A stretch of 64,000 bases of DNA from Nannobrachium achirus. Lineage: Eukaryota; Chordata; Actinopteri; Myctophiformes; Myctophidae. This document shows, piece by piece, positions 10,283 through 63,316 of this stretch. The DNA is taken from positions 42,313,466 through 42,377,465 of the forward strand of contig OY997661.1 in assembly GCA_963921795.1 (NCBI GenBank), given 5' to 3'. Made by a program: the position numbers and the translations under genes. Numbering within the stretch: the stretch's first letter is position 1; the number at the start of each line of letters is the position of its first letter. Under the pieces are notes generated by a model. It had not been told where the DNA came from. It was given only the letters and a program-made list of their open reading frames with translations, and did not search any database.

Positions 10283-10359
10283 CGAAAACAGCCGATCTAC
10301 AAGCCCACAAAGCGTTGCGCTTGCGATGCGTTGTGAGCTTGTAGGTCTGCTGTTTTCAG
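10283..10359. repeat. GATCTACAAGC hairpin, copy 1
   Basis: Basal stem uses AAAACAG/CTGTTTT (C-G pair where other copies have T-A); apical part GCGTTGCGC/GCGATGCG. Host: TIR element 9296-10420. Confidence 0.85.
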
Positions 10360-10420
10360 CCATATTGTGTGACATCAGTCGCAAGCGCCGGAAGCGCCAG
10401 AAAAGGCAGAGCGAGTGGAT

Positions 10421-12176
10421 CTTTAACCCACACCGGTAACTTTGAAGACCCACAATGAGACAGTGAGACAATGGACAATGGTCGCCTGGCCTGGACAACC
10501 GCAACTAAACCTGGAATAAATGGGGGATGAGCTGCCATCATGGGAATGATTGCCCCCCCCCCCCCCCCTTTCTGACATGTTTTTGCTCCCCGGCTCCACC
10601 GGGCGCTCCGGTGACGGCGCCCAAACTCGAAAATCGCCCCATTTAATTTTTTTGACGCCATCCACAACGTCCAGTCATGTATAAAATATGAATAAATGCA
10701 TTGTAGGCTATATTTAAATGTAGGCTATATACTGTACGTGCGTTTCTGGTGTTGGCTATCCATTCACAAGGGTGACTAGATGTCCCAAAAATCCTAGCAT
10801 ATTTTTTTATGTAATTACAGCGGTCTACTTTGATAAAATTATGTACAACAGGCTATAATCATGACAAAACAAAGTGGTCAGTGGTGCATTGCTGCTCTCT
10901 GCTGAACATAGTGTGCGCTATATGTTCACATTCAGGTCACAAATAGTTTTATTCCTGTTTGAAAGTGATTTTCTTGTTGTTTTGGAAATGGGCTATATTG
11001 GCCATAGAATGAATACCTCACAGTCACAGCCGCTGCGCTGCGGTGGTTGCCTGGCTCCAGCCAATAGATCCGCCCACTCTGAGTGGACTGCTTCTCTTGG
11101 TCTGGTTTTGTCATATGACGCGTCTCTTTCTGTCGGTGTCTTGGCAAACCGACCAATGAAATCAATGCAGACGGAGGAGGGGTGGGTCTAACTTGAAAAT
11201 CAACAGAAACAGTGGAGGGAGGGGTGGCTCACTAGCGCTCTTAATTGTTCCCTTTGAACTTCAAAGGGGTTTGAACTGCAGTCATTGATTGAGCCATACA
11301 AGTGTAAATACTAGCTCGTTAGTGCTTCTCTCTAATCAATGAAACATCAAAGACAACAACTTGATGCCTGTCATACAGGGGGAGGGGAATGTTTTGTGTA
11401 CACAAGTCAAACACAACCCCTCCCACCAGATCTCTTGTGATTGGGAATTTCAAATTTTAAATCCCCTCCCCTTTTAAATCAAATAGAATAGGGACAACTT
11501 CAGACTCAAGCTCCAGCGCAGAGTCTGGAATCAGGCTACTGCGGTGGAGCCGGTCAGACGTCAATGTGACGGCGTCAATGATGCCGTCAAGACGCAGAGC
11601 AACGCGACGCCGCCAGTGGAGCCCTGGGGTAGGGAGTGTAGATTTTACTTTTTATTCTGGGTGTAGTTTAGCTTCTTTTCTATTCAGGTAGGGTTTATTT
11701 ATCCCCTATAAAACCCCTATAAAAACTTTTGATCATAATAAATGTCAACATTTCTGTTATGGGTTTGTGGTAGTTTTTATTATGTTACTCCTGACACCAT
11801 ATAAGGTCGTAACACTGCCTGTCAAGTGGTAGGTGTTTTTGTGTTCCTTTTTTGTTGATCCTTTGTCAGGAAGAATTGAGTGTGGGAGACTTGGGGGTCA
11901 TTGTTGTTTGGCTAATGTATATGTATGGATAGACTAATGTAAATATGTATGGTTATAGAGGGTCTGACTCGAAGTAGATCTGTCCAGGAAGTGAACCCTA
12001 TTAAACAGCCGTATGACAGTAGGCTATGACATGGGTTTTACTTTTACCTGTGTTCACGACTGCTTTTTCTTTGTACACAACAGTACTTTTTTCTTTTCAA
12101 ACTTACCTGTAACTTTGTATCCTTAACTACTGTTTTGCCTCTGTGGGACAGATTTTTACCTTTGGGATAATAAAGT
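10421..12176. other. Gene-poor DNA between elements
   Basis: No coding frame is convincing. There is a 16-bp C run at about 10552-10568. 11500-11830 has LTR-like composition (CCCTATAAAACCCC near 11704) but no partner repeat in the window. Confidence 0.3.
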
Positions 12177-13245
12177 TATCTATCTGACATCATTGTCTCC
12201 ACCAGCCGAAGGCATGGGGGAGAGTATGTTTTCGCTCTTGTCCATCTGTGTGTCCATGCGTCCGTCTGTCCGTCCGTCCGTCCGTCCGTCCGTCCGTCCG
12301 TCCGTCCGTCCGTGCGTCCATCCAGTTTGTTACCAGCTAATCTCCGGCGCCGTTGGCTGCCAAAATGAGCACACACACTCCCTGGATGCTGATTCAGAAC
12401 CTCTGCCCCACATTTTTCAAATGGCCCTGTTCTAGAGCCACCATGAGGCCGATGTTTGCAAAACACATTTCTGTACACTACTCTTAGAGATTTTGTCCAC
12501 AAATCCTACAAATCGGTAGACAGTATCTCTACAGTCATGTGATCAACATGGATCTGTCCGATTTTCCATATTCCATCCTGATTGGCTACAATTGGCTTCC
12601 AAAGTTGCTCCGTTTTGAACAAAATGCCTCAAATCATGAACACAGCGTACAATCTCGGTGAAATTGGGCATGCACGTTCCCACTAGGCCGAGGAAGAAAT
12701 GCCACTTCAAATTTCTCAAATCAGCCATATGGTGGCGCTATAACAGGGCAATTTATGTTTTTACCTTTAACTCCACCGATAAGTGGAAAACTTTGTATGC
12801 GCACTCCCTATAGAATCTAAGGATAAACCTTTGCCCTGCATTTTTCACATCTACCTTTTCTAGTGCCACCAGGAGGCCCACTTATGTAAAACACATCTTT
12901 TCCAATTATTCCTTCAGATTTTATCCAAAAATCATGCAAATCAGTACACAGTATCTCTATAGTCATGTGATAAAGACGGACCTGTCCGATATTTCATATT
13001 CCATCCTAATTGGCAAACATTGGCTTCCAAAGTTTGCAGGATTAGTCCATTTTGAAGAAAATGACTTAAATCATATACTCAGCTTGTGATGCAGAGAGAT
13101 TCTGCACGCACATTCCCACTAGATCAAGGAACAAATTACATATATTTGGATCAAAATGCCTCAAATCATGCATGCAGTGTCAAAGGCCAAAGAAGACATG
13201 GCTTTCACCTGTGAGACCTGTGCTCGGAAGAGCACTTCTACTAGT
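12177..13245 (+). repeat. ~1.07-kb dispersed repeat R1
   Basis: Begins with GTCTCCACCAGCCGAAGGC, carries a (CCGT)n tract at 12260-12315, then modules with TGGCGCTATAACAGG and CAGTATCTCTA, and ends GAAGACATGGCTTTCACCTG...CTTCTACTAGTT. A second copy, in reverse, is split by the LTR element (22498-22584 and 29188-29612). The class is unknown. Confidence 0.7.
12260..12315. repeat. (CCGT)n microsatellite in R1
   Basis: Tetranucleotide tract of about 14 units. The same position of the second R1 copy has (GGAC)n at 29521-29570. Confidence 0.95.
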
Positions 13246-13893
13246 TATTGATTGATTGATGGGCCAGTCAAAATTCTGCCACGGGCCGGAACTGGCCCGC
13301 AGGCCTGAGTTTGACTATCAGTGCTCTAGGGTTCTGGTTAACACTGGTTAACATACGAGCACGCTCTGAAAGAGGATGGGTTGTTTGAACTTCCATATAA
13401 GCTGCAGTTTGTGACAATGCTCATTTCATGTTACATCACATTACATACTGTATAACCTATAACACAGATGTCCTGAGATGTATAGAAAATTACCTGTTGA
13501 CTCCTGACAAAACCTACTTTTCCTCTGCACTGCGTAGTGCAGAGGTATAGGTAATAGGTATCATTGTAAAACTGGTATACCGGTATATTCCATGTAGCAT
13601 CTCACACTAAAACAGCATCAGTGTTGACAAAATGGTGCCTGTTCAATGCAATGCAAATATTGCTCCCCAGAAAGTGCCATGCGATTACCGCAATGCAATC
13701 CATTTGCATTGCATTTGACATTTATCTCAGTACATCTCAAGCAGTGACAACGGGACCTTTTGACAGCATAAACATTCTAAATGGGTCCAAGTTTATTTCC
13801 TGTTGCAGTGTTTCTGGATATTGGTAGATGACAGGAAATAACCCTGGACACAAGCTGTTCCCTAGCCACACAATCCCACTGACAACGTCTATA
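13246..13893. other. Intervening DNA with hAT-end remnant
   Basis: 13255-13330 carries GGGCCGGAACTGGCCCGC, a hAT-end-like stretch. The rest is unassigned. Confidence 0.35.
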
Positions 13894-14363
13894 CAGTAGC
13901 AGCGCTTTTCAACCTGCAGCCCGTGGGCCGCATGCGGCCCCTGCAGCATGTCTATGTGGCCCGTCACGGTCATATCAATAAAAATATATTTTGTCTACTT
14001 TCAGTGTGGACAAATAATTTCTGATGTCATTCTTCAGTTTCTCTCCAAAACCACTATAGGAAACTATTTTTTGGCTTGTTTCATACAAGACTTTTTGGCT
14101 ATTTTGTTTGTTCCAAAAGAAGAAACGTCATAATTTCGTCATTAATCGTTCCATGACAATCTTTTTGTTCAATGAGGCTTTGTCCTTAGAGATGTAAATG
14201 TGTCAGTTTTCTGTGTGTTTCCTTCATTTTTAGACTACTCATGTGGTGTGTTACAAAATCATTGAATAAATGTCCAAAATAGGACTAACTTTTAGCTTGC
14301 AGCCCTTGGACTTTTGGTATTTTGCTGAGTGGCCCCTGAGCCATCTTGAGTTGAGTAGCCCTG
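13894..14363. mobile_element. hAT-like non-autonomous element, ~470 bp
   Basis: Starts CAG...CTTTTCAACCTGCAGCCCGTGG and ends GAGTTGAGTAGCCCTG, flanked by GTCTATA on both sides (13887-13893, 14364-14370). Interior AT-rich and non-coding. Confidence 0.6.
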
Positions 14364-15877: not shown

Positions 15878-16143
15878 ATCGTCACTGTCGGGTAGAAACT
15901 TACAAGAAACCTTGTAAGTTTCAAGTTTGTACGTTTTTTCACCAAGTAAAGCCCTGCTTCATCACACAAGGCTGTCTCACAAAAGTAGTGAAAACAGCCG
16001 ATCTACAAGCACACAACGCCTCGCACCGCAAGGCGTTGTGTGCATGTAGATCTGCTATTTTAACTAGTTTTGTTCATTTTTAAAATGATGAATACAAAAC
16101 GAACGGTCTTGGACATACAAGGTTTCCACCCGACAACGACGAT
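15878..16143. mobile_element. MITE with ATCGTCACTGTCGGG ends
   Basis: ATCGTCACTGTCGGGTAGAAAC at left and GTTTCCACCCGACAACGACGAT-type sequence at right are inverted copies. The centre is GATCTACAAGC hairpin copy 2. Other copies: 35734-35986, 38861-39102, 55326-55500. TSD unclear. Confidence 0.75.
15988..16062. repeat. GATCTACAAGC hairpin, copy 2
   Basis: GTGAAAACAGCCGATCTAC arm; apical stem ACAACGCCT/AGGCGTTGT. Host: ATCGTCACTGTCGGG MITE. Confidence 0.85.
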
Positions 16144-18504: not shown

Positions 18505-18970
18505 CAGTGTTGTTTTTGACAGCACATTTTGATTTAGTTTTAGTCATAGTCTTTTGAATCAAATGTCTTTTAGTTTTTTTAGTCATAATTTAGTCACCCG
18601 AACAGTTTTAGTTTTAGTCTAATTGTAGTCGACTAAATATCACAAGATGTATTTTGGCATCGTAATGACTGATTTTACACTTGGTTGCATGCTGAAAATA
18701 GCCGATCTATGAGCTCACATGCGTCGCAGCTTGTAGATCAGCTATTTTCAGCGCGCAACACCTGAGAGCAACCGGACATAAAATGACTGTCTTCTCCACT
18801 AGTACCTCCCTAACGTTTTAGTCTAGTTTTTATTTTGTTGACGAAATTGTCAATATATTTAGTTTTAGTTTTAGTCATCATAGTTTAGTTTTTATTTCGT
18901 TTTCGTCAGTGAAAAAAACGTGGTCGACAAACATTTTTCGTCATAGTTTTAGTCGACAACATCAACACTG
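18505..18970. mobile_element. hAT MITE rich in TTTTAGTC, CAGTGTTG ends
   Basis: Ends CAGTGTTG/CAACACTG with exact 8-bp TSD TGCAGGAC (18497-18504, 18971-18978). Many TTTTAGTC(A/G) repeats, typical of a common teleost hAT MITE. Hairpin copy 3 lies near its centre. Confidence 0.9.
18691..18752. repeat. GATCTACAAGC hairpin, copy 3
   Basis: Outer stem GCTGAAAATAGC/GCTATTTTCAGC is perfect, while the core arm is slightly decayed (GATCTATGAGC). Host: hAT MITE 18505-18970. Confidence 0.85.
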
Positions 18971-20029: not shown

Positions 20030-20306
20030 CATCCTGTCTTACACACTGACTCTTTCTTTCTCTCTATCCCCCTTGCTCTCTCTCTGTCTCCCTTTCTCTC
20101 ATTCATCTCTCCAAACATCTGTTCCCAATAAGGCGTAGTAGTGCCTCGCGGCCGGTGAGAAGTTGAGAACAGACAGGATGTAGCCAAGTGACATGATTTA
20201 GTGCCAGGAGAAGAGGAGGCATTCTCTCTCTCCAGGCAGGGGTGTCGATCGCACCAAATTCTGGGCCCTGGGTACAAGGATTCACTCACATCTTGTGCTT
20301 TAACTG

Positions 20307-20385
20307 TTGAAAAATAGCAGATCTACAAGCTCATAGCGCGGCGCCGAGTGCCGCGCTTGTGAGCTTGTAGATCTGCTATTTTTGA
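20307..20385. repeat. GATCTACAAGC hairpin, copy 4
   Basis: Apical stem AGCGCGGC...GCCGCGCT, with C-G where copy 6 has T-A. Left hairpin of MITE copy A. Confidence 0.9.
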
Positions 20386-20634
20386 AAAATCGTGAAAATG
20401 TGTGCAAGCCTTTGATGCGGAAACTTCTAAGGTTTTTTGAAGAACCTATGTTTCTATGTCAGTGGTGCTCAAACTTATTCATGTGAATGACCCCCAAAAT
20501 GACATGTATTTGGCCACGGACCCCCATCTCAAAATATTTAGTTCCAGGGACCCCCCAGTCCTAGAGGCAAAATTTGAGTTACAAATGTTCGCTTAAAAAA
20601 GACATATTCAAAGATTTGCACACATTTTCACGAC

Positions 20635-20690
20635 AAAAATAGCAGATCTACAAGCTTGCAGCGCGGCACTCTGTGCCGTGAGCTTGTATA
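20635..20690. repeat. GATCTACAAGC hairpin, copy 5
   Basis: Left arm AAAAATAGCAGATCTACAAG intact; right arm stops at GAGCTTGTATAGCTA, so the basal stem is partly lost. Right hairpin of MITE copy A. Confidence 0.8.
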
Positions 20691-20789
20691 GCTAAAGTAT
20701 AGCTAAAGTATAAAATAATGAAGGCCCCTCCACCTTGGGCCCTAGTAACTCAGTCCCACTTCCCCCACCCCCGCCTTGTGACACCCCTG

Positions 20790-21308
20790 CCTGCAGGAAA
20801 CACTCATAAACATCTCATTCCCAGCTACCCGTCTCTATACGTTAACATTTCTCAGGAGTTCTTTTCCCATCATAATCATCATCATCATCACCGGCATCCT
20901 CTTCTTTTTTGTTGATGTTCCGTATATATTTTATTCTCTGCATCGCATCTGTTCCTCTCGTTGACTTCCTTTCCTTCTCATCTCTCCTTCCTCTCTGGTG
21001 GCCTTTCTTTCCTCCTCTCCTTTTTTTCTTCACTCTTCAACTAACTTTTCTTTTTTTTTTCACTTAAATTATTGTGTGTGAGTGTGAGTGTGTGTGCGTG
21101 CGTGCGTGCGTGCGTGAGACGTGCGTGTGTCAGTAGAAGCAGAACAGAGGGCGTTTCAGGTTTGAAAGTGATTAACTGTGACTGAATGACTGGAACAAGG
21201 CACTGTGGAATCACAGCAGCCAAACGGGAGCTAATGTAATGGCTGACGAAATGAAGAAACAATCACAACATATGTATTAGCAATGACCCGCTAGCATGAC
21301 TATAGGAC
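20790..21308. other. Simple-sequence-rich DNA
   Basis: CAT-triplet run near 20872-20891, pyrimidine-rich 20950-21060 and GTGCGTGC repeats at 21070-21118. No gene seen. Confidence 0.4.
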
Positions 21309-23086: not shown

Positions 23087-24766
23087 ATGGCCCATTCGAG
23101 AGCCGGATTAGCTCCGAGGAGATATTGGGGACTCAACGATTGTTGGACTCATTTTTGTCTTCTCCGCTGCTAGAACCAGTTACGGATTTCTACTGATTTG
23201 ACGTTTATGGATTCGATACAGCTGGACGGTTTGTTTTGGAATCCCACTTCGTTCATCTCTGCTAGTAACAACCAGCCGAGGATATTATCAGACGTTTCCC
23301 CTGACTCCCACGGAGTAACACTGAAAGGACTCCCTCCACGTTTTTTCCTCCTGAGCGCGGCACAGGAAGGCAGAAAACACCTGCCGAAATCTAAACAACC
23401 TTTTTACAAACGGAACAACACCTTTGAATTGAAGCGTCTCTTCAAAGCTTGGGGAATGAACTGATAACAGCTTTAATGGCTAAGATAGACAATGAGGAAA
23501 TGAAACAGGTTGTTTCTAGGTGCCCCACAATTGCACCATTTTTGCCCATATGGAGAAAGGAATTCGGATATGATGACTCTCTCCCACATCAACATATCGA
23601 TAAAACCTCACAACGGTCTGAAGAAAGCCGAAATGGAGGCGGCCAGGTTTGGCTCTGGCACAACGTTCCACACCAGGAGCCGTTCACGGACGGTCTCTCT
23701 CCCCTCATCTCTCCGCACAAGAGACTTGAGAGGCGGGCTCCATTCTCACACGCTAAGTCCTAATTCACCACAATCCGGGGTTCAGACGTTTGTACCTGCT
23801 AAGTTAGAGACTAGCTATCTTTAGCCCAAGCTGCGTTTTTATTGTTTAATGTTTTGTAGTCTATTGTTTTATCGCTTTTCGTTGCACGTTTGAGTAACAG
23901 AATAGGGACTGCGGTTTCCTGTTCTGAGGACATAGCAGACTGTTGGTCACAGATTCATGCTTGTCCATATTATTAGTTGGTGTTATTTAGCACGAGACTC
24001 CAGTTTAGTGTTGCCAGGACGAAAGTTATTTCTGTCCTGAAGGAAATCTTTACACGATTTTGTTTAGTGTACCCAGAACAAAAGCAATTGTTCTGAAGGG
24101 AGAATCTCTTGGCCAGTGCATAACCCAGCCACTTAACCACATAACAAATCGCGTGGTTATTTTATCAATAATAGCTGTTTCCAGCTACTTAATCACATAA
24201 GAAATAGCGTGGTTATTTTAATTGGTAGATTTCCTTTATGTTCCAGAACAGAACGTTCTGACGGAAATCTTCATGCTTTACGCTTACACGTCTTCGTTTT
24301 CGTCTCAGTCTTATCTTATTTTATTTATTTATTTTATTTCCGTCTCAGGCGACTCTGAGATGTTGAATACAGGAGCTTTTTATCTCAGCGCTCCCAAGAA
24401 CATTTTTAAGAAACATGACCATTCAAGCTAAAAAAGCCCCCTGCTCCGAGAAGCAGTGTTTTTATCGTGTAAATCCTGGACACACACGGATGAGATGTTA
24501 CAATCTAAACCTAGAACCTTTTTTTTAACCCGGACCTCACATCACTCTGGAAGATCATCGGGAACTCCCATTTACCAGCAATACCTAAAACCTTTCCTGG
24601 AACATTTCAATGGATATGTGCGAAGCTGACATTATTGCCACTGGATGTGTTGCTGGATACCACGCAAACCTCATTAGGAAGGAACCGAGAACGCAAACAG
24701 TGTTTTCAGATGCTGACGGGCTTGACAAGGCCCCCCCCAGCCGAACCTGGCTGGCACTGCCTTCCA

Positions 24767-24810
24767 CTCACAACGCGATGGGACGCGTTGTGAGCTTGTC
24801 GATCTGCTAC
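24767..24810. repeat. GATCTACAAGC hairpin, partial copy inside LTR element
   Basis: Apical stem CTCACAACGCG/CGCGTTGTGAG is perfect and the right arm continues CTTGTCGATCTGCTA. The left basal arm is absent. Confidence 0.75.
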
Positions 24811-29823: not shown

Positions 29824-29888
29824 TCAGGAGTCGCACCAAATTCTGGGCTCTGGGTACAAGGATTCACTCACATTTTGTGCTTTAGCTA

Positions 29889-29967
29889 TTGAAAAATAGC
29901 AGATATACAAGATCATAGCGTGGCACCGAGTGCCACGCTCTGAGCTTGTAGATCTGCTATTTTTGAA
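29889..29967. repeat. GATCTACAAGC hairpin, copy 6
   Basis: Apical stem AGCGTGGCA/TGCCACGCT; the T-A pair replaces the C-G of copy 4 in the same family, a two-sided change. Confidence 0.9.
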
Positions 29968-30213
29968 AAATCATGAAAATTTGTCTTTGAATATTTCAAA
30001 TCCTTCTAAGATTTTTTGAAAAACCTATGTTTCTATTTCAGTGGTGCTCAAACTTCTTCATGTCAAGGACCCCCAAAATGATATGTATTTGGCCACGGAC
30101 CTCCATCTCAAAACATTTAGTTCCAGGGACCCCCCAGAAGCAAAATATTAGTTACAAATGTTCGCTTAAAAATACATATATTCAAAGATTTGCAAACATT
30201 TTCACGACTTTTC

Positions 30214-30683: not shown

Positions 30684-30727
30684 CAGGGGTGTCGCACCAA
30701 ATTCTGGGCCCTGGGTACTTTAGCTAT

Positions 30728-30783
30728 TGAAAAATAGCAGATATACAAGCTCACAGCGAGCTTGTAGATCTGCTATTTTTGAA
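30728..30783. repeat. GATCTACAAGC hairpin, copy 8
   Basis: TTGAAAAATAGCAG...CTGCTATTTTTGAA; very short apex (CTCACAGCGAG). Confidence 0.85.
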
Positions 30784-31040
30784 AGATCGTGAACATTTGT
30801 GCTAGTCCTTGAATATTTCAAATCCTTCTAAAGGTTTTTTGAAAAAAACCTATGGTTTCTAGGTCAGTGGTGCTCACACTTTTTCATGTGAAGGACCCCC
30901 AAAATGATATGTATTTGGCCGCAGACCCCCATCTCAAAATATTTAGTTCCAGGGACCCCCCAGAAGCAAATATTGGAGTTACAAATGTTCGCTTAAAAAA
31001 TACATATATTCAAAGATTTGCACACATTTTCACGACTTTT

Positions 31041-31091
31041 CAAAAATAGCAGATCTACAAGCTTGCAGAGCTTGTATATCTGCTATTTTTC
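31041..31091. repeat. GATCTACAAGC hairpin, copy 9
   Basis: AAAAATAGCAGATCTACAAG then GCAGAG then CTTGTATATCTGCTATTTTT. Right hairpin of MITE copy C. Confidence 0.85.
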
Positions 31092-31204
31092 CATAGATAA
31101 AGTATCAAATAATTAAGGCCCCTCCACCTTGGGCCCTATTAACTCAGTCCCACTTTCCCCCCTTGTGACGGGGGGGGCTGGTGATTTTGATGACGACGCA
31201 GATA

Positions 31205-31284: not shown

Positions 31285-31758
31285 CAGTGGTGTAAATTAA
31301 CTAAGTACATTAACTTAAGTACTGTACTTAATAAGTAACATTTTTAGGTATTTGTACTTTACTTGAGTATTTCCAATTTCCAATACTTTTACTTCTACTC
31401 CACTACATCTCAGATCCAAATACTTTTACTCCACTACAATTGTTTGAAAACGTTAGTTACTAGTTTACTACTTTACAGATATAAATTACAATATTAAAAA
31501 ACATACATTAACCTCTTTAGCCCTATTTTCCTACGCTATTTGAAAATAGCCAATCTCCATGCAGGCTCACAACACGTTGCGATACGATGCGTTGTGAGCT
31601 TGTAGATCTGCTATTTTCAAACATTATTGTACTTTTACTTTTGGCACTTTAAGTACATTTTGATGCCAATACTTTCATACTCAAGTCAAGTACATTTCTA
31701 CATTGCAGTATTGATACTTTTACTTAAGTAAAACATTTGAGCACTCTTTCCACTACTG
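31285..31758. mobile_element. hAT MITE, AAGTA-rich teleost family, full copy
   Basis: CAGTGGTGTAAATTAACTAAG...CTTTCCACTACTG with exact TSD AAGATTTT (31277-31284, 31759-31766). Sub-terminal ACTTAAGTA motifs at both ends. Hairpin copy 10 is at the centre. Confidence 0.92.
31540..31620. repeat. GATCTACAAGC hairpin, copy 10
   Basis: TTGAAAATAGCC...GCTATTTTCAA; apex GCTCACAACACGTTGCGA/GCGTTGTGAGC. Host: hAT MITE 31285-31758. Confidence 0.88.
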
Positions 31759-34677: not shown

Positions 34678-35120
34678 CCTGTCCGTAGCCTGGGCAATAC
34701 CTTGAGTGGCCACACACAACACACTAGTTAAAGGAGGGGCGCTGTTTTGTGCAGGCCAGGCACACTCACCACTCACTCACAGGCACAGTTTACACTCACT
34801 CACTCACTCACTCACATAGGGTACAGCTGCTCAAATTCACCGCTCCACTTCGAACCGAGGTTTGATTTTTTACTATGAGGTGCAACACCTTGGTCTCTCT
34901 GTTAGCCAAGGTTTACCTTCTAACTCAATAACAACAGAATTCTCCCCATGGAATCTATAAAGGTCTATTGATCTAATCACTTTCACCCCTGTATCACTAT
35001 TTTTGAAAAATAAATTTAGTTTAATTTTATTCATGTTCCAAAATAGCAGATCTACAAGCTAACGTTAGCTTGTAAATCAGCTAGCTTTTGCTATTCGTCG
35101 TATGATGAAATATATAGTGC
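34678..35120. other. Spacer with (CACT)n and hairpin copy 11
   Basis: CACT repeats at about 34786-34816; the solo hairpin 35039-35098 lies here outside any MITE I can bound. Confidence 0.4.
35039..35098. repeat. GATCTACAAGC hairpin, copy 11
   Basis: CCAAAATAGCAGATCTACAAG, apex CTAACGTTAG (self-complementary), right arm CTTGTAAATCAGCTAGC. A different apex from all other copies, with no host MITE found. Confidence 0.75.
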
Positions 35121-35986: not shown

Positions 35987-36010
35987 TTATGTCCCTCGTG
36001 TCCCACTTAT

Positions 36011-38710: not shown

Positions 38711-39261
38711 CAGGGACGTGCTGGCCATTGGGAAAAGCGGGACAACTCCCGAACGGCCGGTTCATTCCCGTCCGGTCCAGGCCGGCCATTTGGAAAAAAA
38801 TACAAATAAAATGTCGGCCTTCGTTCCATTTTTGGGGCTGGGCGGCCAACAAAGTAAATCATCACTGTCGGGCAGAAACCTTGTATCTCCAAGTTTCAAA
38901 TTCATACATTTTTTCGCAAAGCAAAGCCCTGCTTCATCATACAAGGCCGTTGCACAAAAGTAGTGAAAACACTACTTTTGTTCGCGGTGCGAGGCGTTGT
39001 GTGCTTGTAGATCGGCTGTTTTCACTAGTTGAAATCATTTTTAAAATGATAAATACAAAACAAACGGTTTTGGACATACAAGGTTTCCACCCGACAACGA
39101 CGAAATATAACTCATGCACAGTAATTGGCCCACTGGCTTGTCACTTGTCATGATCTGAAATGGCAGCGCTATAGAGAGAGATCTCACTCTATATAGCGTG
39201 CAATGAGGGCCTCTCCAACTCTTTTTCCCGGGCTGAATCAGGGGCCCAGCACGTCCCTAGA
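38711..39261. mobile_element. GGGACGTGCTGG-family MITE with nested ATC(G)TCACTGTCGGG element
   Basis: CAGGGACGTGCTGGCCATTG...GGGCCCAGCACGTCCCTAG; flanks GTGTCCAC/CTGTCCAC (7 of 8). The nested element 38861-39102 holds a damaged hairpin (right arm 38985-39028). The outer element is itself inserted in an AAGTA-rich hAT remnant. Confidence 0.75.
38985..39028. repeat. GATCTACAAGC hairpin, damaged copy
   Basis: GCGAGGCGTTGTGTGCTTG then TAGATCGGCTGTTTTCAC; the left arm has been replaced by ACACTACTTTTGTTC. Confidence 0.75.
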
Positions 39262-39413: not shown

Positions 39414-39640
39414 ACAATTATTACATAATCACCTAATCACAATTACAAGATAATCGAAATGATTTCGCATAATCGTCTTAATCGTTGGCATGTCGAAAAA
39501 GGTTCACACATTCTCAAAAGTATTCAAAGAATTGTGGAAATTGCAGATCCACAAGCTCACAATGCATCGGATTATGAGCTTGTAGATCAGCTATTTCCAC
39601 TATTTTGAATATTTTTCAAAGAATAAAGTTATTAAATGTA
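39414..39640. repeat. TAGGGCTGTCAC-family MITE, partial copy
   Basis: Begins TAGGCCTGTCACAATTATTA with TCGCATAATCGTC and TAATCG repeats, as at 55811-56064. Includes a hairpin at 39536. The far end is not clear. Confidence 0.7.
39536..39602. repeat. GATCTACAAGC hairpin, G-C outer-stem version
   Basis: GTGGAAATTGCAGATCCAC..., apex CTCACAATGCATCGGATTATGAG, right arm CTATTTCCAC: the A-T pair of other copies is G-C here. Confidence 0.85.
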
Positions 39641-40565: not shown

Positions 40566-40979
40566 GGGCGTGGCACCAAATTCTGGGCCCTGGGTACAAC
40601 GATTCACTGCGGGCCCCCCATGAATGTTCTTCAAAGGGGGAGGGGGTTTAACCCATTTAGACTGGGAACGCATTATTTTGTGCTTTAAATATTGAAAAAT
40701 AGCAGATATACCAGCTCACGCTGCGAGCTTGTAGATCTGCTATTTTCGAAACATCGGGAACGTTTGGGCAAGTCTTTGAACATTTCAAATCCTTCTAAGG
40801 TTTTTTGAAAAATCCATGTTTCTATGTCAGTGGTGCTCAAACGTTTTCATGTGAAGGACCCCCAAAATTATATGTATTTGGCCATGGACCCCCATCTCAA
40901 AATATTTAGTTACAAATGTTTGCTTAAAAATTACACAAAAATACATTAACCCTCAGTCCTCTCCCCGTAACACCCCTGT
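40563..40979 (+). mobile_element. MITE, CAGGGGTGTC family, copy D (inserted in TG repeat)
   Basis: CAGGGGCGTGGCACCAAATT...CCGTAACACCCCTG; (TG)n lies on both sides, so it appears inserted in the microsatellite. One hairpin. Confidence 0.8.
40687..40748. repeat. GATCTACAAGC hairpin in MITE copy D
   Basis: AAAAATAGCAGATATACC, short apex CTCACGCTGCGAG, right arm CTTGTAGATCTGCTATTTTC. Confidence 0.85.
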
Positions 40980-41545: not shown

Positions 41546-41800
41546 CAGGGGTTCTCAACTTTTTCAGGCCGCGACCCCCAAAATAATCTTATTTGAACAG
41601 GGGACCCCCCACCCTGACGAACGAAGTGGAGTTGGAAGAGTTGAGGCATTACATTTCACGGTTCTATTGTGAAAATAGCTAATCTACATGCTCACAACAC
41701 CGTTGTGAGCATGTAGATCGGCTATTTTCACAATTTATGTCTGTAATATTTGACAATTTGTTCAAATTGTTAATTTTAGAGGTATTAAAAAGGTCTTAAC
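41546..41800. repeat. hAT MITE, CAGTGGTTCTCAACC family, partial
   Basis: CAGGGGTTCTCAACTTTTTCAGGC, then the body with an intact hairpin (41667-41734) and GTAATATTTGACAATTTG; the right end is missing. Confidence 0.8.
41667..41734. repeat. GATCTACAAGC hairpin in hAT copy
   Basis: TGTGAAAATAGCTAATCTAC, apex CTCACAACACCGTTGTGAG, right GTAGATCGGCTATTTTCACA. The outer stem extends into TGTG/CACA of the host. Confidence 0.9.
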
Positions 41801-42673: not shown

Positions 42674-43076
42674 CAGTGATGTCATTACGTGCGCATCCCG
42701 CATCAAAAACTCATTCAAGTCACCCAGGGACTCATTCATGTCATGGTCCTGGGGTCCCGGGGATGCGCCTCCATTGGAGTCCATGTTAAAATAATTTACC
42801 GCGTCGCGGTAAAAGAAAAAAAAAAAATTCCACAGACACCACCATTGTTCATGGGTGAAAGCATCCTACTTTACCCTACATTAACACAAATAAAATCCAC
42901 GTAGAAAGTCTTAAACAGGCGATAGAAACGTCAATGTTTTGATTCCACCGACGTCCGACAACATTTTGCGCGCGTAAACTTTATATTGAGGACTCATAAA
43001 AATGTTCTGGGACCCATTTGAATGACCACCTGTGGGTCCTGGGACCCATTACATTGAAAACCTAGTAACATCACTG
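42674..43076. mobile_element. MITE with CAGTGATGT ends and 6-bp TSD, copy 1
   Basis: CAGTGATGTCATTACGT...ACCTAGTAACATCACTG flanked by CAGGGA on both sides (42668-42673, 43077-43082). Shares GGGATGCGCCTCCATTGGAG with the second copy at 54351-55028. No hAT 8-bp duplication. Confidence 0.85.
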
Positions 43077-50328: not shown

Positions 50329-50740
50329 CAGGGGTCTTCAACATTTTCATGCCAAGGACCCCTTAGCTGAGAGAGAGATGAAGCAGGGACCCCCACAACC
50401 TTTTTATAGATTCCATATAGTTTCATTGTTTGACACACGATCATCAGTGTATTTTGGATTCATGTCCATGTGTGTTTTCAGATATTTATATGAACCGTCA
50501 ATACTTAATAAACTTGACCTTTCACTCTGTACTTAGTCTGCTCTTTTTCCCCTCTACATCAAACCTCTTTGCCGAAAATAGCCGATCTACAAGCGTTGTG
50601 AGCTTGTAGATCTGTAGATCTGCTATTTTTGGCTATAGTTCTCTGAATATGGACGCTAGGGTTCAAGTGGTTATTATAATAAAGGAGAAAAATGTTTCTA
50701 TCACACAAAGATTTGGAGGACCCCCTGTTGAAGACCCCTG
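50329..50740. mobile_element. hAT MITE, CAGGGGTCTTCAAC family, full copy
   Basis: CAGGGGTCTTCAAC/GTTGAAGACCCCTG ends and exact TSD GTCTATGA (50321-50328, 50741-50748). Hairpin near the centre at 50572. Other copies: 37842-38157 and fragments at 53148, 55501, 57001. Confidence 0.93.
50572..50637. repeat. GATCTACAAGC hairpin in hAT MITE
   Basis: GCCGAAAATAGCCGATCTAC, very short apex (AAGCGTTGTGAGCTT), and a duplicated GTAGATCT on the right arm before GCTATTTTTGGC. Confidence 0.88.
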
Positions 50741-54350: not shown

Positions 54351-55028
54351 CAGTGATGTTACTAGGTTTTCAATGTAATGGGTCCCGGGACCCACAGGTG
54401 GTCATTCAAATGGGTCCCAGAAAAGTTTTATGAGTCCTCAATACAATGTTTTCGAGCGGTGTGAGCTTGTAGATCGGCTATTTTCAAAATGTTTGCCTAT
54501 TTCTTATATTTATTTTACAATTTGGCTAATGTTTGAACTTAGAACTATGATTTCTAAATACACTAGTCTACAGACACCCATTTAATTATATTTATATCAC
54601 TGGGACCCCAATTTATATTAAATGTTAAAATACTAGAGTACAAATGGAACAGGTCCATTTGGTTCCATTTGTTCACCGAGTTACAGACCCATAAAGTTCT
54701 ATTTGGTTCCTAACTATCATTTATTTGGGGACCCCCTGGAACTCCCTCAAGGACCCAGGAACCCACTTTGAGAACCACTAGTGAAAATACTAGTTTTTAG
54801 CTGTTCCAGGTTTAACTGATAATAAATCTTTACAGTGTTTATCTTACGCAATACATTAAAAAACGAATTAAACTATCTAAACTAATATAGCAACTTAAGT
54901 AGAAGAAGTAAATTATTTTAACATGGACTCCAATGGAGGCGCATCCCCGGGACCCCAGGACCATGACATGAATGAGTGAGTGATTGAATGAGTTTTTGAT
55001 GCGGGATGCGCACGTAATGACATCACTG
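54351..55028. mobile_element. MITE with CAGTGATGT ends and 6-bp TSD, copy 2
   Basis: CAGTGATGTTACTAGG...ACGTAATGACATCACTG flanked by ATACAT (54345-54350, 55029-55034); inverse to copy 1. Contains a half hairpin at 54448-54488 (GTGTGAGCTTGTAGATCGGC) and extra DNA (54490-54890) absent from copy 1. Confidence 0.85.
54448..54488. repeat. GATCTACAAGC hairpin, right arm only
   Basis: GTGAGCTTGTAGATCGGCTA with TTTTC after it; left arm lost. Confidence 0.7.
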
Positions 55029-55034
55029 ATACAT

Positions 55035-55325
55035 TATACAGAGTTTTGTATGTTCTGTGTGCAATATCACATGCAAATGAATATGTGATAAGTGGTGATC
55101 TTGGCAAATGTGCAATGGACATGCAAATGCCTATGGATTCTATACAAATACTACAGCAAGAGACAGTAACTGTATAGACTATGGAATAATGTACTGTAGT
55201 CAGGTTTGTATACTAGTGTAACTAGACTACTGTATGTAAATAAATAAATATTTGCCACATAATTTTGAGATACTGTACAAACATGGAAGTAAATACAGTA
55301 CATAAGTCAATAAAACACGTAACAT
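55035..55325. other. AT-rich unassigned DNA
   Basis: Nothing recognised. Confidence 0.3.
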
Positions 55326-55500
55326 ATCGTCACTGTCGGGCAGAAACCTCGTATCTCCAAGTTTCAAATGTGTACGTTCTTTGGCAAAGTAAAGCCCCGC
55401 TTCATCATACAAGGCCGTCGCACAAAAGTAGTGAAAACAGCAGATCTACAAGCACACAACGCCTCACGGTGCGAGTGGTGGGTTTGTAGTTCTGCTGTTT
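55326..55500. repeat. ATCGTCACTGTCGGG MITE, left half with hairpin
   Basis: ATCGTCACTGTCGGGCAGAAAC through hairpin 55433-55503 (apex CAACGCCTCACGGTGCGAG), then abruptly continues as the CAGGGGTCTTCAAC family. Another chimera joined at the hairpin. Confidence 0.8.
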
Positions 55501-55503
55501 TCG
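55433..55503. repeat. GATCTACAAGC hairpin, chimeric copy
   Basis: Left arm GTGAAAACAGCAGATCTAC from one MITE; right arm degraded (GTTTGTAGTTCTGCTGTTTTC) and followed by GGCTAAAGTCCTCAG of another family. Confidence 0.8.
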
Positions 55504-55637
55504 GCTAAAGTCCTCAGAATATGGACGCTAGTGGTTAATATAAAAACGGAGACAAAAGTAACACAAAGATTTGGAGGACCCCCTGTAGTAACTCTGAGGA
55601 CCCCCTAGGGGTCCCGGACCCCCTGTTTAAGGCCCCT
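55501..55637. repeat. CAGGGGTCTTCAAC-family MITE, right part
   Basis: GGACGCTAGTGGTTAAT...GGGTCCCGGACCCCCTG...AAGGCCCCTG. Confidence 0.75.
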
Positions 55638-55810
55638 GCTCTATGTCCAACATTCTGCTTGATGGCCTGCACTCATGTACAGTTAGAGTACACGTTCAAT
55701 GTAAACTGTGTTACGGTTATGTTTACAGACTTAATTGCAGACAGTACAGTAAATGGGGGTTCATGGTCTTGATTGGAGGAGAAGAGAGTCTCTTTAGTGC
55801 CGTGCATGAC

Positions 55811-56064
55811 TAGGGCTGCCACGATTATGACATTTTACATGACGATTAATTGTCACTCTAACAATTGCGATTAACAATTTAATTGTGTTTTTTGTCGTTG
55901 ACAATTAGATTTTTGGCTTTTAGGCTTTGAAGTTGCACATGGCAATTATGACACATAACTTAAATATAAAAATATACGATTATGCAAAATAATTGCGATT
56001 ACCTCAAATAACTGTGATTAGACGATGTCTAATTATACAGTATGTAATAATTGTGACAGCCCTA
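55811..56064. mobile_element. hAT-like MITE, TAGGGCTGYCAC family, full copy
   Basis: TAGGGCTGCCACGATTATGA/TAATAATTGTGACAGCCCTA with exact 8-bp TSD TGCATGAC (55803-55810, 56065-56072). AATTGCGATTA repeats inside. This copy has no hairpin, unlike 39414 and 62263. Confidence 0.9.
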
Positions 56065-56884: not shown

Positions 56885-56932
56885 CTCATAGCCTTAAACT
56901 CTTTAGCTCTCTAGACTTCGTTATACAATAAA

Positions 56933-57000
56933 TAGTGAAAATAGCCTGATCTACAAGCTCACAAGACATCGCATCACAACGTTTTGTGAGCTATCTTTGG
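56933..57000. repeat. GATCTACAAGC hairpin, right arm damaged
   Basis: GTGAAAATAGCCTGATCTAC, apex CTCACAAGACATCGCATCAC...TTTTGTGAG, then CTATCTTTGGC without GTAGATC. Confidence 0.75.
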
Positions 57001-57115
57001 CTAAAGAATATGGATGCTAGGGTTCAAGTGGTTATTATAAAAAAGGGGGGAAAAAATCACACAAAGATTTGAAGGACCCCCTAGGGGTCCCGGACCCACT
57101 GTTGAAGAACCATGG
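57001..57115. repeat. CAGGGGTCTTCAAC-family MITE, right part
   Basis: GGATGCTAGGGTTCAAGTGG...GGTCCCGGACCC...GTTGAAGAACCATG. Confidence 0.75.
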
Positions 57116-58878: not shown

Positions 58879-59285
58879 CAGTGGTTCTCAACCTTTTCAG
58901 GCCGCGACCCCCAAAACAATCATATTTTAACTGTTGGGGACCCCCCCTCCACCACCCTGATGAGCACTAAGAGTTTAGGCATTACATTCTGTACAACACG
59001 GTTCTGTTGTGAAAATAGATGATCTACAGAGGCGTTGTGTGCATGTAGATCGTCTATTTTCACAATTTCTGCCTCTAATATTTGACAATTTGGCCAATGT
59101 TTAATTTGGCATTTTAGAGGTGTTTAAAAGTCCTTAAATTGTCACTTTAGTGCATACACTTAAAATCTATGTTGGGTTGTGTGAGAAAACAATCTTGCAC
59201 ATTACGTAAGTTAATCATCTGGGGACCCCCCAAAATAATTGGGGACCCCCCCTGGGGGTCCCGACCCACAGGTTGAGAACCACTG
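58879..59285. mobile_element. hAT MITE, CAGTGGTTCTCAACC family, full copy
   Basis: CAGTGGTTCTCAACC/GGTTGAGAACCACTG ends with exact TSD ATATAGAC (58871-58878, 59286-59293). Hairpin near the middle. Partial copies at 22179, 41546, 43339 and 44051. Confidence 0.93.
59009..59063. repeat. GATCTACAAGC hairpin in hAT MITE
   Basis: TTGTGAAAATAGATGATCTAC...GTAGATCGTCTATTTTCACAA; apex nearly lost (AGAGGCGTTGTGTGCAT). Confidence 0.88.
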
Positions 59286-60012: not shown

Positions 60013-60977
60013 GTTCTAACTAAGTAGGACTTTGAATGTTTGTCTTTATTACAATTAATGAACGATAAAAAAAATAGGCGATCTACAAGCTCACAACGTG
60101 TTGCATTGCCATTCTTGAGGGGCACCATTGCGCAAGGAAGTTACGAAGTATAATACAGGATTAAGAAGTTAATCAGAAATCTTCATGTTGGGCAAACATG
60201 GAAACACCAGAGGAATATGACCCAGCTGAGCCTGGGTCAAAGGTCACTCTCAGAAGTTTTCTCCCCTGCTGCTGCGACGTGTGATGGTGTTTGATGATCA
60301 CAGAGTAGGAGACAGCAGGAGAGGAAGCATTTTGCAGCGTTGGTTTAACCATAAAGTAAACACATGCACACAAACAGTGCACACATGGATACATACAGTG
60401 AGAGTTGATTTAGCACTGAAAGTGTGAAAATGGCGCAAAACCAACATGTAAGGGTCTAATTTTTACTTAAATACATTAACTTTTTCCCTGCCAGATGTTG
60501 TTATTTATTATTGGGTTTTGTGCCAGCAAAAGCACCTTACCTTTGCGATGATATAGACAAAGATGTATTCATTTTTTTTTTTGAAATTTTCTCTTAAAGA
60601 GGTGTGCCGTGGCTCTACCAGCAGTAGGGGGCAGCCTCATGCAAGAATTAATGTGAAAATGGTCTCAGATCACTCTTGCTCGTCAAGGCTGTTCAAGGCT
60701 GATGAGTCGCTACAGAGCAATAGATCCAGAGAAAAACACATGGAAGAGTGTTGTGACTCCATTGATGCTAACGTCCAGTTGGATTTTAAGAGTACTTTTA
60801 TGGGAGCTGTTTCAACGGTACACACCCGCGCGACGCCTCATCAGGTTACAGACATCAAACCAAGGTACAAAAGAACGAGCCAAAGAACGTACAATTGGCG
60901 TTCCGCCGCCGTAAAAAATGGGGCGAACGTGAACGTTCAAAGCGTTGATAGAGTTAACACTGATTATTTTAAACAAA
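60013..60977. other. Unassigned DNA with half hairpin
   Basis: 60066-60105: left hairpin arm AAATAGGCGATCTACAAG with apex CTCACAACG, right arm missing. A 243-codon open frame spanning 60563-61294 is not supported: it runs through a CA repeat and a hAT MITE. Confidence 0.4.
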
Positions 60978-61081: not shown

Positions 61082-61508
61082 GGTGGAAAAAAGAGTACTA
61101 CATTGCATGCAGTATCAATACTGCAATGTAGATTTACTCTGTTCCAAGTAGAAGTATGTGTTAAAAGTACAGATTATGCAGAATGTCCCATTTCAACATT
61201 TCAAATATTTAAAAATCTTTTGAAAATAGACGATCTACAAGCTCACATCGAGACACATTGTGAGCTTGTAGATCGTCTATTTTCAAATGGCTGAAATGTA
61301 CCGTATAGGACTGAAGTGGATGATGTAATGATCAAATCTACTATGGAACTAGTAAATAAAGTTTTCATTTAAATGTAGTGGAGTAAACGTACAATATTTG
61401 GATCCAAGATGTAATGGAGTAGAAGTAAAAGTATTGAAAATTGGCGATACTCAAGTAAAGTTCAAATACCTAAAATTGTACTTAGGTACAGTACAGTACT
61501 TACACATG
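61078..61508. mobile_element. hAT MITE, AAGTA-rich family, second copy
   Basis: CAGTGGTGGAAAAAAGAGTA...GTACTTAGGTACAGTACAGTAC, with GTAGTGGAGTAAACGTAC inside; body matches 31285-31758 in inverse. The right tip is unclear because another MITE abuts it. Confidence 0.75.
61216..61287. repeat. GATCTACAAGC hairpin, ACG/CGT version
   Basis: TTTGAAAATAGACGATCTAC...GTAGATCGTCTATTTTCAAA: pairs AC/GT replace CA/TG of most copies on both arms. Confidence 0.92.
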
Positions 61509-61533
61509 GTAGATATGACACATAACCTAAATA

Positions 61534-62260: not shown

Positions 62261-62262
62261 TA

Positions 62263-62474
62263 TACAAAGAAATTACTGACATATTTGACAACTTTATACT
62301 TAAAAGAGAACATTGATAGTGGAAATAGACGATCTGCGACGCGTTGTGAGCTTGTAGATCTGCTATTTCCACTATTTTTTACTTTTTTAGAAATATATGA
62401 AAAATTTTCAACATGGAAACGATTATGTCAAAAAATTGCGATTAGATGATTATGTAATAATTGTGACAGCCCTA
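62263..62474. repeat. TAGGGCTGYCAC MITE, right part, with hairpin
   Basis: Continues ATATGACACATAACC (61510-61531), interrupted by the 61534-62260 element, and ends TAATAATTGTGACAGCCCTA. Hairpin at 62320-62375. Confidence 0.8.
62320..62375. repeat. GATCTACAAGC hairpin, left arm shortened
   Basis: TAGTGGAAATAGACGATCTG, apex CGACGCGTTG, right GTAGATCTGCTATTTCCACTA; outer stem of the G-C type (GGAAATAG/CTATTTCC). Confidence 0.85.
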
Positions 62475-62899
62475 CACACACACACACCTCGATTGTCCTC
62501 CCCTCCCCGAAGGTGTGCAGTAGCATGTGAGAGCCATCACAGAGGGAGAGACTCATGTGTTCCTCATTTGGAGCCATTTGCCCAAAGCATGCTGTCAGGC
62601 TCCATCTGGTTGTGTGTGCGTGTGTGAGCGTATTGTGTGTGTGCGTGCGTGCATGTGTGTGTGTGTTAATGTGTGCCTGTATTTGTTTACGTGTCAGTGA
62701 CCCCGGAGTCATCCAGGGAAACGTCTATGTCAGCGCAACGGTTGTTGCGCCGGAGGAAATGCCTATTTTTGTGTGCACGTGTGGGCGAGGCCACATGGAA
62801 CCCTATTGTGTGTTCGCGTTCACGCTTCTTTTCACCGAAATTGTCTGGGCCCGGATCTCCATTTAACGACCGGGTACACATTATTGCACGTAATGTTTT
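62475..62899. other. Unassigned DNA with GT repeats
   Basis: GTGTGTGCG tracts 62608-62667; no gene supported. Confidence 0.35.
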
Positions 62900-62907
62900 G
62901 CTTTAGC

Positions 62908-62972
62908 TATTGAAAAATAGCAGATATTCAAGCTCACAGTGCGGCACCGAGCTTGTAGATCTGCTATTTTTG
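62908..62972. repeat. GATCTACAAGC hairpin, left copy of MITE F
   Basis: TTGAAAAATAGCAGATATTC, apex CTCACAGTGCGGCACCGAG, right CTTGTAGATCTGCTATTTTT. Confidence 0.85.
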
Positions 62973-63245
62973 AAAAATCATGAAGATTTGTGCAAGTCTT
63001 TGAATATTTTGATTCTAATACCGTAAGTGTCTCCTAAATCCTTCTAAGGTTTTTTGAAAAACCTATGTTTCTATGTCAGTGGTGCTCAAACTGTTTCATG
63101 TCAAGGACCCCCAAAATTATATGTATTTGGCCACGGACCCCCATCTCAAAATATGAACTTCTAGGGACCCCCAGAAGCAAATATTGAGTTACAAATGTTC
63201 GCTTAATACATATATTCAAACATTTGCACACATTTTCACGACTTT

Positions 63246-63316
63246 TAAAAAATAGTTGATCTACAAGCTCGAGCACCGAGTGCCGCGCTGTGAGCTTGTA
63301 TATCTGCTATTTTTCA
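63246..63316. repeat. GATCTACAAGC hairpin, right copy of MITE F
   Basis: AAAAAATAGTTGATCTACAA, apex GAGCACCGAGTGCCGCGCTGTGAG, right CTTGTATATCTGCTATTTTT. Confidence 0.85.

What the first reader, a model, noticed from the sequence alone, without database searches (positions are those of the whole stretch)
10283..63316. One hairpin module, more than 30 copies, shared by unrelated transposon families
A 55-80-nt inverted repeat with core GATCTACAAGC...GCTTGTAGATC recurs about every 2 kb from 10 kb on. Hosts with different terminal repeats and TSD types carry it: CAGTGGTTCTCAACC, CAGGGGTCTTCAAC, CAGTGTTG/TTTTAGTC, AAGTA-rich and TAGGGCTGYCAC hAT-like MITEs, CAGGGGTGTC (two per element), ATCGTCACTGTCGGG, CAGTGATGT (6-bp TSD), the 9296-10420 TIR element, and part of it in a young LTR element. 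It often lies mid-element. Shared ancestry of the hosts cannot easily explain this; a mobile or converting hairpin that settles inside other transposons could.
Basis: partly seen in the sequence, partly recalled or inferred. Interest (0 to 1): 0.92.

Follow-up and report, generated by a model that had tools for sequence, protein, structure and literature searches.

The report
Hairpin element nested in hAT transposons
A roughly 75-base self-complementary DNA segment recurs at very high copy number in what looks like a fish genome, probably because it is the core of small mobile elements that jumped into many other transposons and were copied along with them.

Summary
The 16-base core matches 49 times in the window (0.56 expected); 26 places fit a hairpin model and about 6 more are single arms. 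The window's own genome (1.66 Gb) has 463,584 exact GATCTACAAGC arms. A sample of 20 stretches holds 76 hairpin loci in 188 kb; scaled, I estimate ~0.66 million loci.

Hosts really differ: eight end types with exact 8-bp duplications (hAT-like), a 6-bp-duplication family, and a MITE (H6) flanked by TA in 9 of 14 copies.

The mechanism is partly resolved. In the CAGGGGTCTTCAAC family (H3) the hairpin sits inside a 191-210 bp unit with inverted ends CCACTTGAACC and TTAA borders; one copy (L054) has a single TTAA at that exact point. H6 sits inside three further hAT-like families. So the mobile thing is a small MITE with the hairpin at its centre, nested in hAT-like elements and amplified with them. 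Interior replacement and breaks at the palindrome also move or destroy it (54351-55028, 55324-55640). For most hosts the entry route is inferred. Closest known: Angel in Tol2, and coral CMITEs.

The parts
10275..10367 (.). hairpin in the 9296-10420 element
   Evidence: model R2, E 2e-15; DNA fold z -7.7
15879..16142 (+). H6: MITE with TA on both sides (TCGTCACTGTCGGG / CCCGACAACGACGA), hairpin at 15981-16072
18505..18970 (+). H1: hAT-like MITE CAGTGTTG, TSD TGCAGGAC, hairpin 18685-18759
20233..20793 (.). H7: CAGGGGTGTC element with two hairpins (20301-20393, 20626-20712)
   Evidence: relative L018:414-867 has an exact 8-bp TSD
24762..24810 (.). partial hairpin (left outer arm missing) inside a young LTR element
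   Evidence: LTRs 22585-23092 and 28686-29193, 99.4% identical
29883..29974 (.). hairpin, H7 copy (its second one, left arm only, at 30224)
30721..31100 (.). two hairpins of an H7 copy (30721-30790, 31033-31100)
31285..31758 (+). AAGTA-rich hAT-like element CAGTGGTG, TSD AAGATTTT, hairpin 31533-31628, TTAACC end to its left
35030..35098 (.). short-loop hairpin, host not identified
35590..35990 (+). CAGGGACGTGC element fragment with nested H6, hairpin 35825-35917
36712..36806 (+). right half-hairpin of a CAGGGGTGGGCAA-type element
   Evidence: E 0.0007
37842..38157 (+). CAGGGGTCTTCAAC (H3) copy, TSD ATGTAGAG, only the right half of the hairpin left
38712..39258 (+). CAGGGACGTGC element with nested H6 (38858-39104); left hairpin arm replaced by an inverted copy of AAAAGTAGT (by eye)
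39527..39608 (.). hairpin in a TAGGGCTG-type element starting about 39404
40686..40757 (.). hairpin, H7 copy
41662..41739 (.). hairpin, H4 copy (41546-41799)
42674..43076 (-). hairpin-less copy of the CAGTGATGT family, TSD CAGGGA (read by eye)
50329..50740 (+). H3: hAT-like CAGGGGTCTTCAACA, TSD GTCTATGA, host of the TTAA unit
50486..50674 (+). TTAA-type unit inside H3 (borders read TTAT in this copy), hairpin 50565-50640
   Evidence: single-TTAA copy L054
53508..53587 (.). hairpin, H7 copy
54351..55028 (+). CAGTGATGT element, 6-bp TSD ATACAT; interior replaced by 449 bp that begins inside a hairpin right arm (54460-54475)
55324..55640 (+). chimera: H6 left half and hairpin joined in register to the right half of H3
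55811..56064 (+). TAGGGCTG hAT-like element without hairpin, TSD TGCATGAC
56928..57008 (+). hairpin with H3-type right flank
58879..59285 (+). H4: hAT-like CAGTGGTTCTCAACC, TSD ATATAGAC, hairpin 59002-59071 with shortened left inner arm
60080..60095 (+). left half-hairpin
61213..61294 (.). hairpin with perfect 29-nt arms in an AAGTA-type element
62312..62380 (+). hairpin in a TAGGGCTG-type element ending about 62475
62904..63324 (.). two hairpins (62904-62981, 63239-63324) of an H7 copy
2636..2727 (-). decayed hairpin outside the stated span
   Evidence: E 0.018

Best explanation
The hairpin is the palindromic centre of small non-autonomous elements (MITEs) with their own ends. Two kinds are identified: a TTAA-bordered unit (TTAACCACTTGAACC...hairpin...GGTTCAAGTGGTTAA) and a TA-flanked unit (H6). 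These inserted into many hAT-type MITEs; each composite was then copied as part of its hAT host, which raised the hairpin to about 0.66 million loci. Once inside, the palindrome is a weak point: arms are deleted, elements are truncated or joined there, and interiors are replaced from there; this spreads half-hairpins to still other families. Shown: the TTAA unit in H3 with a single-TTAA copy at the same point; H6 lying inside three hAT-like families; interior replacement in the CAGTGATGT family; an in-register chimera. Inferred: that the remaining hosts (H1, H4, H7, AAGTA, TAGGGCTG, CAGGGGTGGG, L015) got it the same way and that the nested units' ends have decayed; that a TTAA transposase moved the unit; that H6 moves with a TA duplication; that compensated changes in the arms come from hairpin-templated copying in the active lineage.
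For: H3: in 4 copies (L023, L032, L036, L051) the unit has TTAA at both borders and matching ends, length 192-210 bp, same flanks AGATAT and TATA; L057 (191 bp) reads TTAT at the left border; L058 (136 bp) has the unit without the hairpin. The inverted ends of the consensus score 34, best of 200 shuffles 32. L054 runs GATAT-TTAA-TATAAAAAAGG with one TTAA and no unit (from 40 places scored of 559 candidates, 3 covering the joined query almost end to end; I read those 3 and 2 others, not the remaining 35). GGTTAA outward on both sides with matching ends: 6 of 91 full hairpins (the four H3 copies above, L021 with a 67% match to H3, and L029), 0 for each of 8 control motifs. AAGTGGTTAA (<=1 mismatch) near hairpins: 15 outward against 1 inward, of 51 in 252 kb, many of the 15 in H3 copies; of five control words one that differs by a single letter, and so overlaps, gave 11 to 2, the others 1-4 outward. 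L029:412-526 is a 115-bp TTAA-bordered hairpin unit; beside it only a 27-base match to L011 upstream and an H4 copy starting 187 bases downstream were found. H6: 9 of 14 copies have TA on both sides (2 of the 9 share one site), and H6 lies inside CAGGGACGTGC (L017; 35590, 38712), CAGGGGTCGGCAA (L029:3079-3543) and CAGGGTTCCCCAA (L019:2728-3090, L028) elements. Hairpin position is fixed within AAGTA: at least one arm at that place in 18 of 20 copies read, of 40 scored and 3514 candidates.
Against: The single-TTAA copy is one copy; a deletion between two TTAA repeats would look alike, and L054 has another small deletion nearby. Among the 15 flank pairs tested for inverted ends of a nested unit only H3 and H6 beat every shuffle; TAGGGACG (z 3.3) did not, and H1, H4, H7, AAGTA, TAGGGCTG, CAGGGGTGGG and L015 show none. 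AAGTA has a TTAACC end on one side only. The TTAA unit's ends (CCAC) do not fit the CC[C/T]T motif given for piggyBac ends in PMC2872659. No empty site was seen for H6. Why TA-type and TTAA-type MITEs share one core is not explained by nesting. 22 of 76 sample loci have no recognised host.
Confidence: 0.6

Rival explanations
1. Interior swapping is the main route: when a hAT element is cut out or a fork stalls in it, repair copies the ends and then switches template, picking up another element's interior; the palindrome is the usual switch point.
For: 54351-55028 keeps 108 + 121 bp of its family's ends but has 449 bp in place of 167-169 bp, starting inside a hairpin arm after a shared GCG (by eye); the hairpin-less form is seen twice (42674-43076 and L028:4676-5076). 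The TAGGGCATTCAC element L019:9093-9576 contains an H4 interior (z 30); a second, internally deleted copy is L023:5082-5289; both have exact 8-bp TSDs. 55324-55640 joins H6 and H3 in register at the hairpin. Gap-filling and fork-stalling models exist for animal hATs (PMC8277862, passages).
Against: Flank pairs are mostly constant among the 54 hairpins with both arms, so such joins look rare; the H3 and H6 cases are plain nested insertions; some swaps could equally be nested insertion followed by deletion.
Confidence: 0.22
2. The bare ~75-nt hairpin is itself a minimal MITE that inserts with its own target duplication.
For: Cross-hairpin similarity falls off sharply at GAAAATAG/CTATTTTC; some copies look solitary (L031:3789, with a direct repeat on both sides; L022:6679).
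Against: In the families looked at, flanks immediately outside are short inverted, not direct, repeats (over all 17 hairpins the extension at -20 to -11 is not significant, 0.447 vs 0.364, p 0.067); no empty site at the hairpin edge was seen; the hairpin of L058 is missing without a direct repeat.
Confidence: 0.08
3. All hosts descend from one ancestral element; the hairpin is kept by selection while the rest diverged.
For: Arms of one hairpin co-vary (32 cells changed on both sides against 16.1 in shuffles, 0 of 500; but the two measures that count pairs or pair types were reached by 43 and 131 of 500 shuffles). 40 of 76 sample loci lie in hosts with hAT-type ends.
Against: Hosts have 8-bp, 6-bp, TA and TTAA target types and ends that do not align; the CAGTGATGT family exists without it; one H3 copy has a single TTAA in its place; arms of one hairpin differ at 13.5% (16 pairs), as much as arms of other copies in the family, as in neutral decay.
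Confidence: 0.05

Closest known systems
Angel elements of teleosts, and the Angel inside the hAT transposon Tol2
   Same: [quoted passage not shown] stem-loop and compensatory changes in Angel copies of lncRNAs in PMC3636048, passages).
   Different: Here the core sits in many hAT-like families, not one, and also in a TA-flanked and a 6-bp-type element. Whether this core is Angel by sequence could not be tested: no Angel sequence was at hand; Izsvak et al. 1999 was seen only as a reference entry.
CMITEs of Acropora corals (PMC2872659)
   Same: About 75-nt internal region better conserved across MITE families than their TIRs; TTAA duplications; insertion of a CMITE creating a new composite mobile element (abstract and sections 10, 13, 14 read).
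   Different: CMITE ends share CC[C/T]T, ours start CCAC; the words hairpin and palindrom- do not occur in the paper; CMITEs are put at about 1600 copies in A. millepora, here hundreds of thousands of loci; here the hosts are hAT-like.
Pack-TIRs by gap filling / FoSTeST (PMC8277862)
   Same: Interior of hAT and other TIR elements changed through template switching at short shared sequence (passages).
   Different: Those capture non-transposon sequence such as gene pieces; here one transposon takes another's palindromic interior.

Membership tests
hAT superfamily (hosts) | 8-bp target duplication | tested here: met
   exact in 8 hairpin-bearing end types: CAGTGTTG, CAGGGGTCTTCAAC, CAGTGGTTCTCAACC, CAGTGGTG/AAGTA, CAGGGACGTGC, CAGGGGYGTC, TAGGGCATTCAC, CAGGGGTCGGCAA; 7 of 8 bases in CAGGGTTCCCCAA and TAGGGACGGGACG
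hAT superfamily (hosts) | CAG/TAG-type terminal repeats | tested here: met
hAT superfamily (hosts) | hAT transposase in an autonomous partner | not tested
   PF05699 search did not complete
hAT superfamily (54351-55028 family) | 8-bp target duplication | tested here: not met
   6-bp duplications ATACAT, CAGGGA, CCTGAG; not filed as hAT
piggyBac-type TTAA element (unit in H3) | TTAA duplication with one TTAA in an empty site | tested here: met
   TTAA at both borders in 4 hairpin-bearing copies plus L058; single TTAA in one copy, L054
piggyBac-type TTAA element (unit in H3) | TIR starting CC[C/T]T (as stated in PMC2872659) | tested here: not met
   starts CCAC; so not filed as piggyBac
piggyBac-type TTAA element (unit in H3) | mobilised by a piggyBac transposase | not tested
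   no transposase search was made; mobilisation itself needs an assay
Tc1/mariner-type MITE (H6) | TA target duplication | tested here: inconclusive
   TA on both sides in 9 of 14 copies; no empty site seen
Angel / CMITE | sequence similarity to the published consensus | not testable with these tools
   no consensus held; text searches only
known RNA family | Rfam match at gathering score | tested here: not met
   0 matches in the window; 7 sub-threshold ones at 35700-36000

The most novel reading that the evidence does not exclude
One palindromic core has become an interchangeable centre for MITEs of at least four target types (TTAA, TA, 6-bp, 8-bp), because the palindrome itself is copied from element to element by hairpin-primed template switching, which re-matches its arms in each new lineage. 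Nested insertion would then be only one of its routes, and the hairpin a parasite of MITEs that needs no transposase of its own.
Probability: 0.18. Interest if true: 0.85.

Novelty: new variant of a known kind. Interest (0 to 1): 0.6.

Why it matters
If right, a single small palindromic element makes up perhaps 2-3% of a vertebrate genome (my estimate from the locus count), mostly as a passenger of other transposons: mobile elements parasitising mobile elements. The genome holds families with and without the hairpin, enough to ask directly whether an internal palindrome helps or harms the amplification of MITEs, and how TIR families exchange interiors. It also warns that a shared internal hairpin does not prove common descent of repeat families.

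Tried and rejected
Rfam: nothing above threshold. IMG/VR and GTDB scans for the core: 0 viral; 5 bacterial matches, about the number expected by chance by my estimate; one was printed and had no second arm (which then failed), the other four were not examined. An AAGTA pattern in IMG/VR: 0. RNAalifold on A1 found no structure (I think because truncated copies were in it, not tested); with a named structure 87.6% of cells pair, shuffled 83.4%. Pfam on 7 open frames: three weak hits in two frames, each below its curated cut-off. Common ancestry of hosts: set aside on target types. Left-right inverted ends of a nested unit in hosts other than H3 and H6: not found. Search for an autonomous hAT source: not completed. 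Joined-flank test of H4 for an empty site: not completed.

Against my reading: only one host family, H3, has a single-TTAA copy, and only one such copy was read; TTAA borders on both sides in 6 of 91 full hairpins, four or five of them H3 copies. My notebook said 10 of 14 H6 copies have TA on both sides; the recount gives 9. The sample of 20 stretches is systematic (20.00 Mb of C1-C20), not random, though notes call it random.
Full report
WHAT IS THERE. The core GATCTACAAGCTCACA matches 49 times in the window with up to 3 mismatches, 0.56 expected. Most matches pair into hairpins with arms GTGAAAATAGCMGATCTACAAGCTCACAACGC and a variable inner stem. A model built from 22 of them finds 26 places at E<0.02, 22 of them its training set; about six more are half-hairpins. 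Six of six folded copies fold with z from -7.7 to -13.8. Rfam has no match at its thresholds.

SCALE. The window lies in a 1,658,514,493-base assembly of 564 contigs, on contig C24. Exact GATCTACAAGC occurs 231,940 + 231,644 times; the reversed, uncomplemented control 54 + 43 times. Twenty stretches of 10 kb (one per contig C1-C20, at 20.00 Mb; 188,050 bases without N) hold 53 exact arms and 76 hairpin loci, 29 of them with both arms at up to 3 mismatches. The exact-arm density, 282 per Mb, agrees with the whole genome, 280 per Mb. Scaling gives about 0.66 million loci, half-hairpins included. That, the CA repeats and repeat types I recall from teleosts suggest a fish; this is inference.

HOSTS. 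Elements with exact 8-bp duplications and CAG/TAG ends carry the hairpin. In the window there are 8 such elements, 7 and 18505-18970 (missed by the filter); 5 of 8 carry a hairpin arm and 3 (14647-15146, 49299-50165, 55811-56064) do not. The sample adds CAGGGACGTGC, CAGGGGYGTC, TAGGGCATTCAC and CAGGGGTCGGCAA with exact duplications, and CAGGGTTCCCCAA and TAGGGACGGGACG with 7 of 8. One search proposed end pairs for 34 of 90 loci; I rely only on those read, and many of the others look like chance. The CAGTGATGT family has 6-bp duplications. H6 has TCGTC-type ends and TA on both sides in 9 of 14 copies. Of the 76 sample loci, 54 fall into families recognised by flank (H6 12 + 2, H4 9, H7 8 + 1, H3 5, TAGGGACG 4, H1, TAGGGCATT, TAGG and AAGTA 3 each, L015 1) and 22 into none.

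NESTED UNITS. H6, with its hairpin, lies inside CAGGGACGTGC, CAGGGGTCGGCAA and CAGGGTTCCCCAA elements, and copies of two of these composites recur. In H3 the hairpin lies in a unit bordered by TTAA with ends CCACTTGAACC/GGTTCAAGTGG. Six units between the same flanks were measured: five with hairpin, 191-210 bp, four of them with TTAA at both borders and one (L057) with TTAT at the left; and L058, 136 bp, whose hairpin is missing between its two bases. I searched the genome with the two host flanks joined across one TTAA: 40 places were scored of 559 candidates, 3 covered the query almost end to end. I read 5 places, not the other 35, which match one side only. L054 has the host running through a single TTAA with no unit. 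L055 and L056 are other rearrangements, L057 and L058 contain the unit. So the unit behaves as a TTAA-target element that inserted into, or left, an hAT-like element; a deletion between two TTAA repeats is the alternative for this one copy. Outward GGTTAA on both sides with matching ends occurs in 6 of 91 full hairpins and for none of 8 control motifs; in a stricter test over 16 palindromic tetramers TTAA scored 3 of 91, ATAT and TATA 1 each (the same H6 copy), the rest 0. One of the 6 is the 115-bp unit L029:412-526, beside which only a 27-base match to L011 and, 187 bases downstream, an H4 copy were found. AAGTA elements have TTAACC on one side only.

BREAKS AND SWAPS. 54351-55028 shares 108 and 121 bp of ends (94-95%) with the hairpin-less 42674-43076 and L028:4676-5076 but has another interior, starting inside a hairpin arm. 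The TAGGGCATTCAC element of L019 contains an H4 interior. 55324-55640 joins the left of H6 to the right of H3 at the hairpin. At 38958-38985 a left arm has been replaced by an inverted copy of its neighbour (by eye). In AAGTA, 18 of 20 copies read have a hairpin arm at the usual place; L037 has a collapsed hairpin and L039 a different palindrome. In the TAGGGCTG family the hairpin-bearing L020 copy has about 140 extra interior bases compared with 55811-56064, with no clean junction.

ARMS. Own arms match better than arms of other hairpins: 0.789 against 0.718, 0 of 5000 shuffles, in 35 full hairpins of the sample. In the window, 32 cells changed on both sides against 16.1 in shuffles, but the measures counting pairs and pair types were reached by 43 and 131 of 500 shuffles. 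Neither test controls for relatedness, and the family-specific outward extension is not significant over 17 hairpins (p 0.067). The two arms of one hairpin differ at 13.5% (16 pairs), as much as arms of other copies in the family (12.5%), against 19.8% between families. So matched arms seem to have been set when each family was founded and to decay afterwards; no upkeep within copies is seen.

READING. Nested insertion of hairpin-centred MITEs, copied with their hAT-like hosts, explains H3 and H6 directly and is my best account of the whole. Interior replacement at the palindrome is a second route that is seen. What joins the TTAA and TA types to one core remains open.

KNOWN KINDS. Tol2, a fish hAT, contains an Angel inverted-repeat element (figure legend in PMC8151067). 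Coral CMITEs share a 75-nt interior across TIR families and have TTAA duplications (PMC2872659, abstract and sections 10, 13, 14). That paper cites Izsvak et al. 1999 on teleost short inverted-repeat elements among MITEs of the same origin; I did not read that article. The text searches listed no paper that I recognised as describing this core; searching the 11-mer itself listed 4 papers on other subjects (none read).

Noticed in passing
14669-14752 and 59936-59988: A second, unrelated palindrome (GCTAAGGTATGGCAACATGACTGGTGTC) inside another hAT-like element, 14647-15146 (exact 8-bp TSD GTCTGATA) and its relative at 59545-60012.
   Followed up: partly
L039, about 1740-1930: An AAGTA element whose hairpin region is replaced by a different palindrome with ends ACACCAAAATACC: palindromes may replace each other at the same site.
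   Followed up: no
22585-29193: Young LTR element, LTRs 508 bp and 99.4% identical, no stop-free frame of 130 aa inside, carrying a partial hairpin at 24762-24810.
   Followed up: partly
L027:5908-6105; G000:C1:469826-469959: Hairpin arms in short tandem series (spacing about 90 bases; 43, 43 and 37 bases), so the core may also form minisatellites.
   Followed up: no
L031:3750-3870: A hairpin flanked by a 20-24-base direct repeat (GTTGAAACCACGCCCACTCGTTAA) on both sides; insertion with a long duplication or a local tandem duplication.
   Followed up: no
51004-51519: Perfect tandem duplication with a period of 256 bases.
   Followed up: no
42674-43076, 54351-55028, L028:4676-5076: CAGTGATGT family with 6-bp target duplications, superfamily not determined.
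   Followed up: partly
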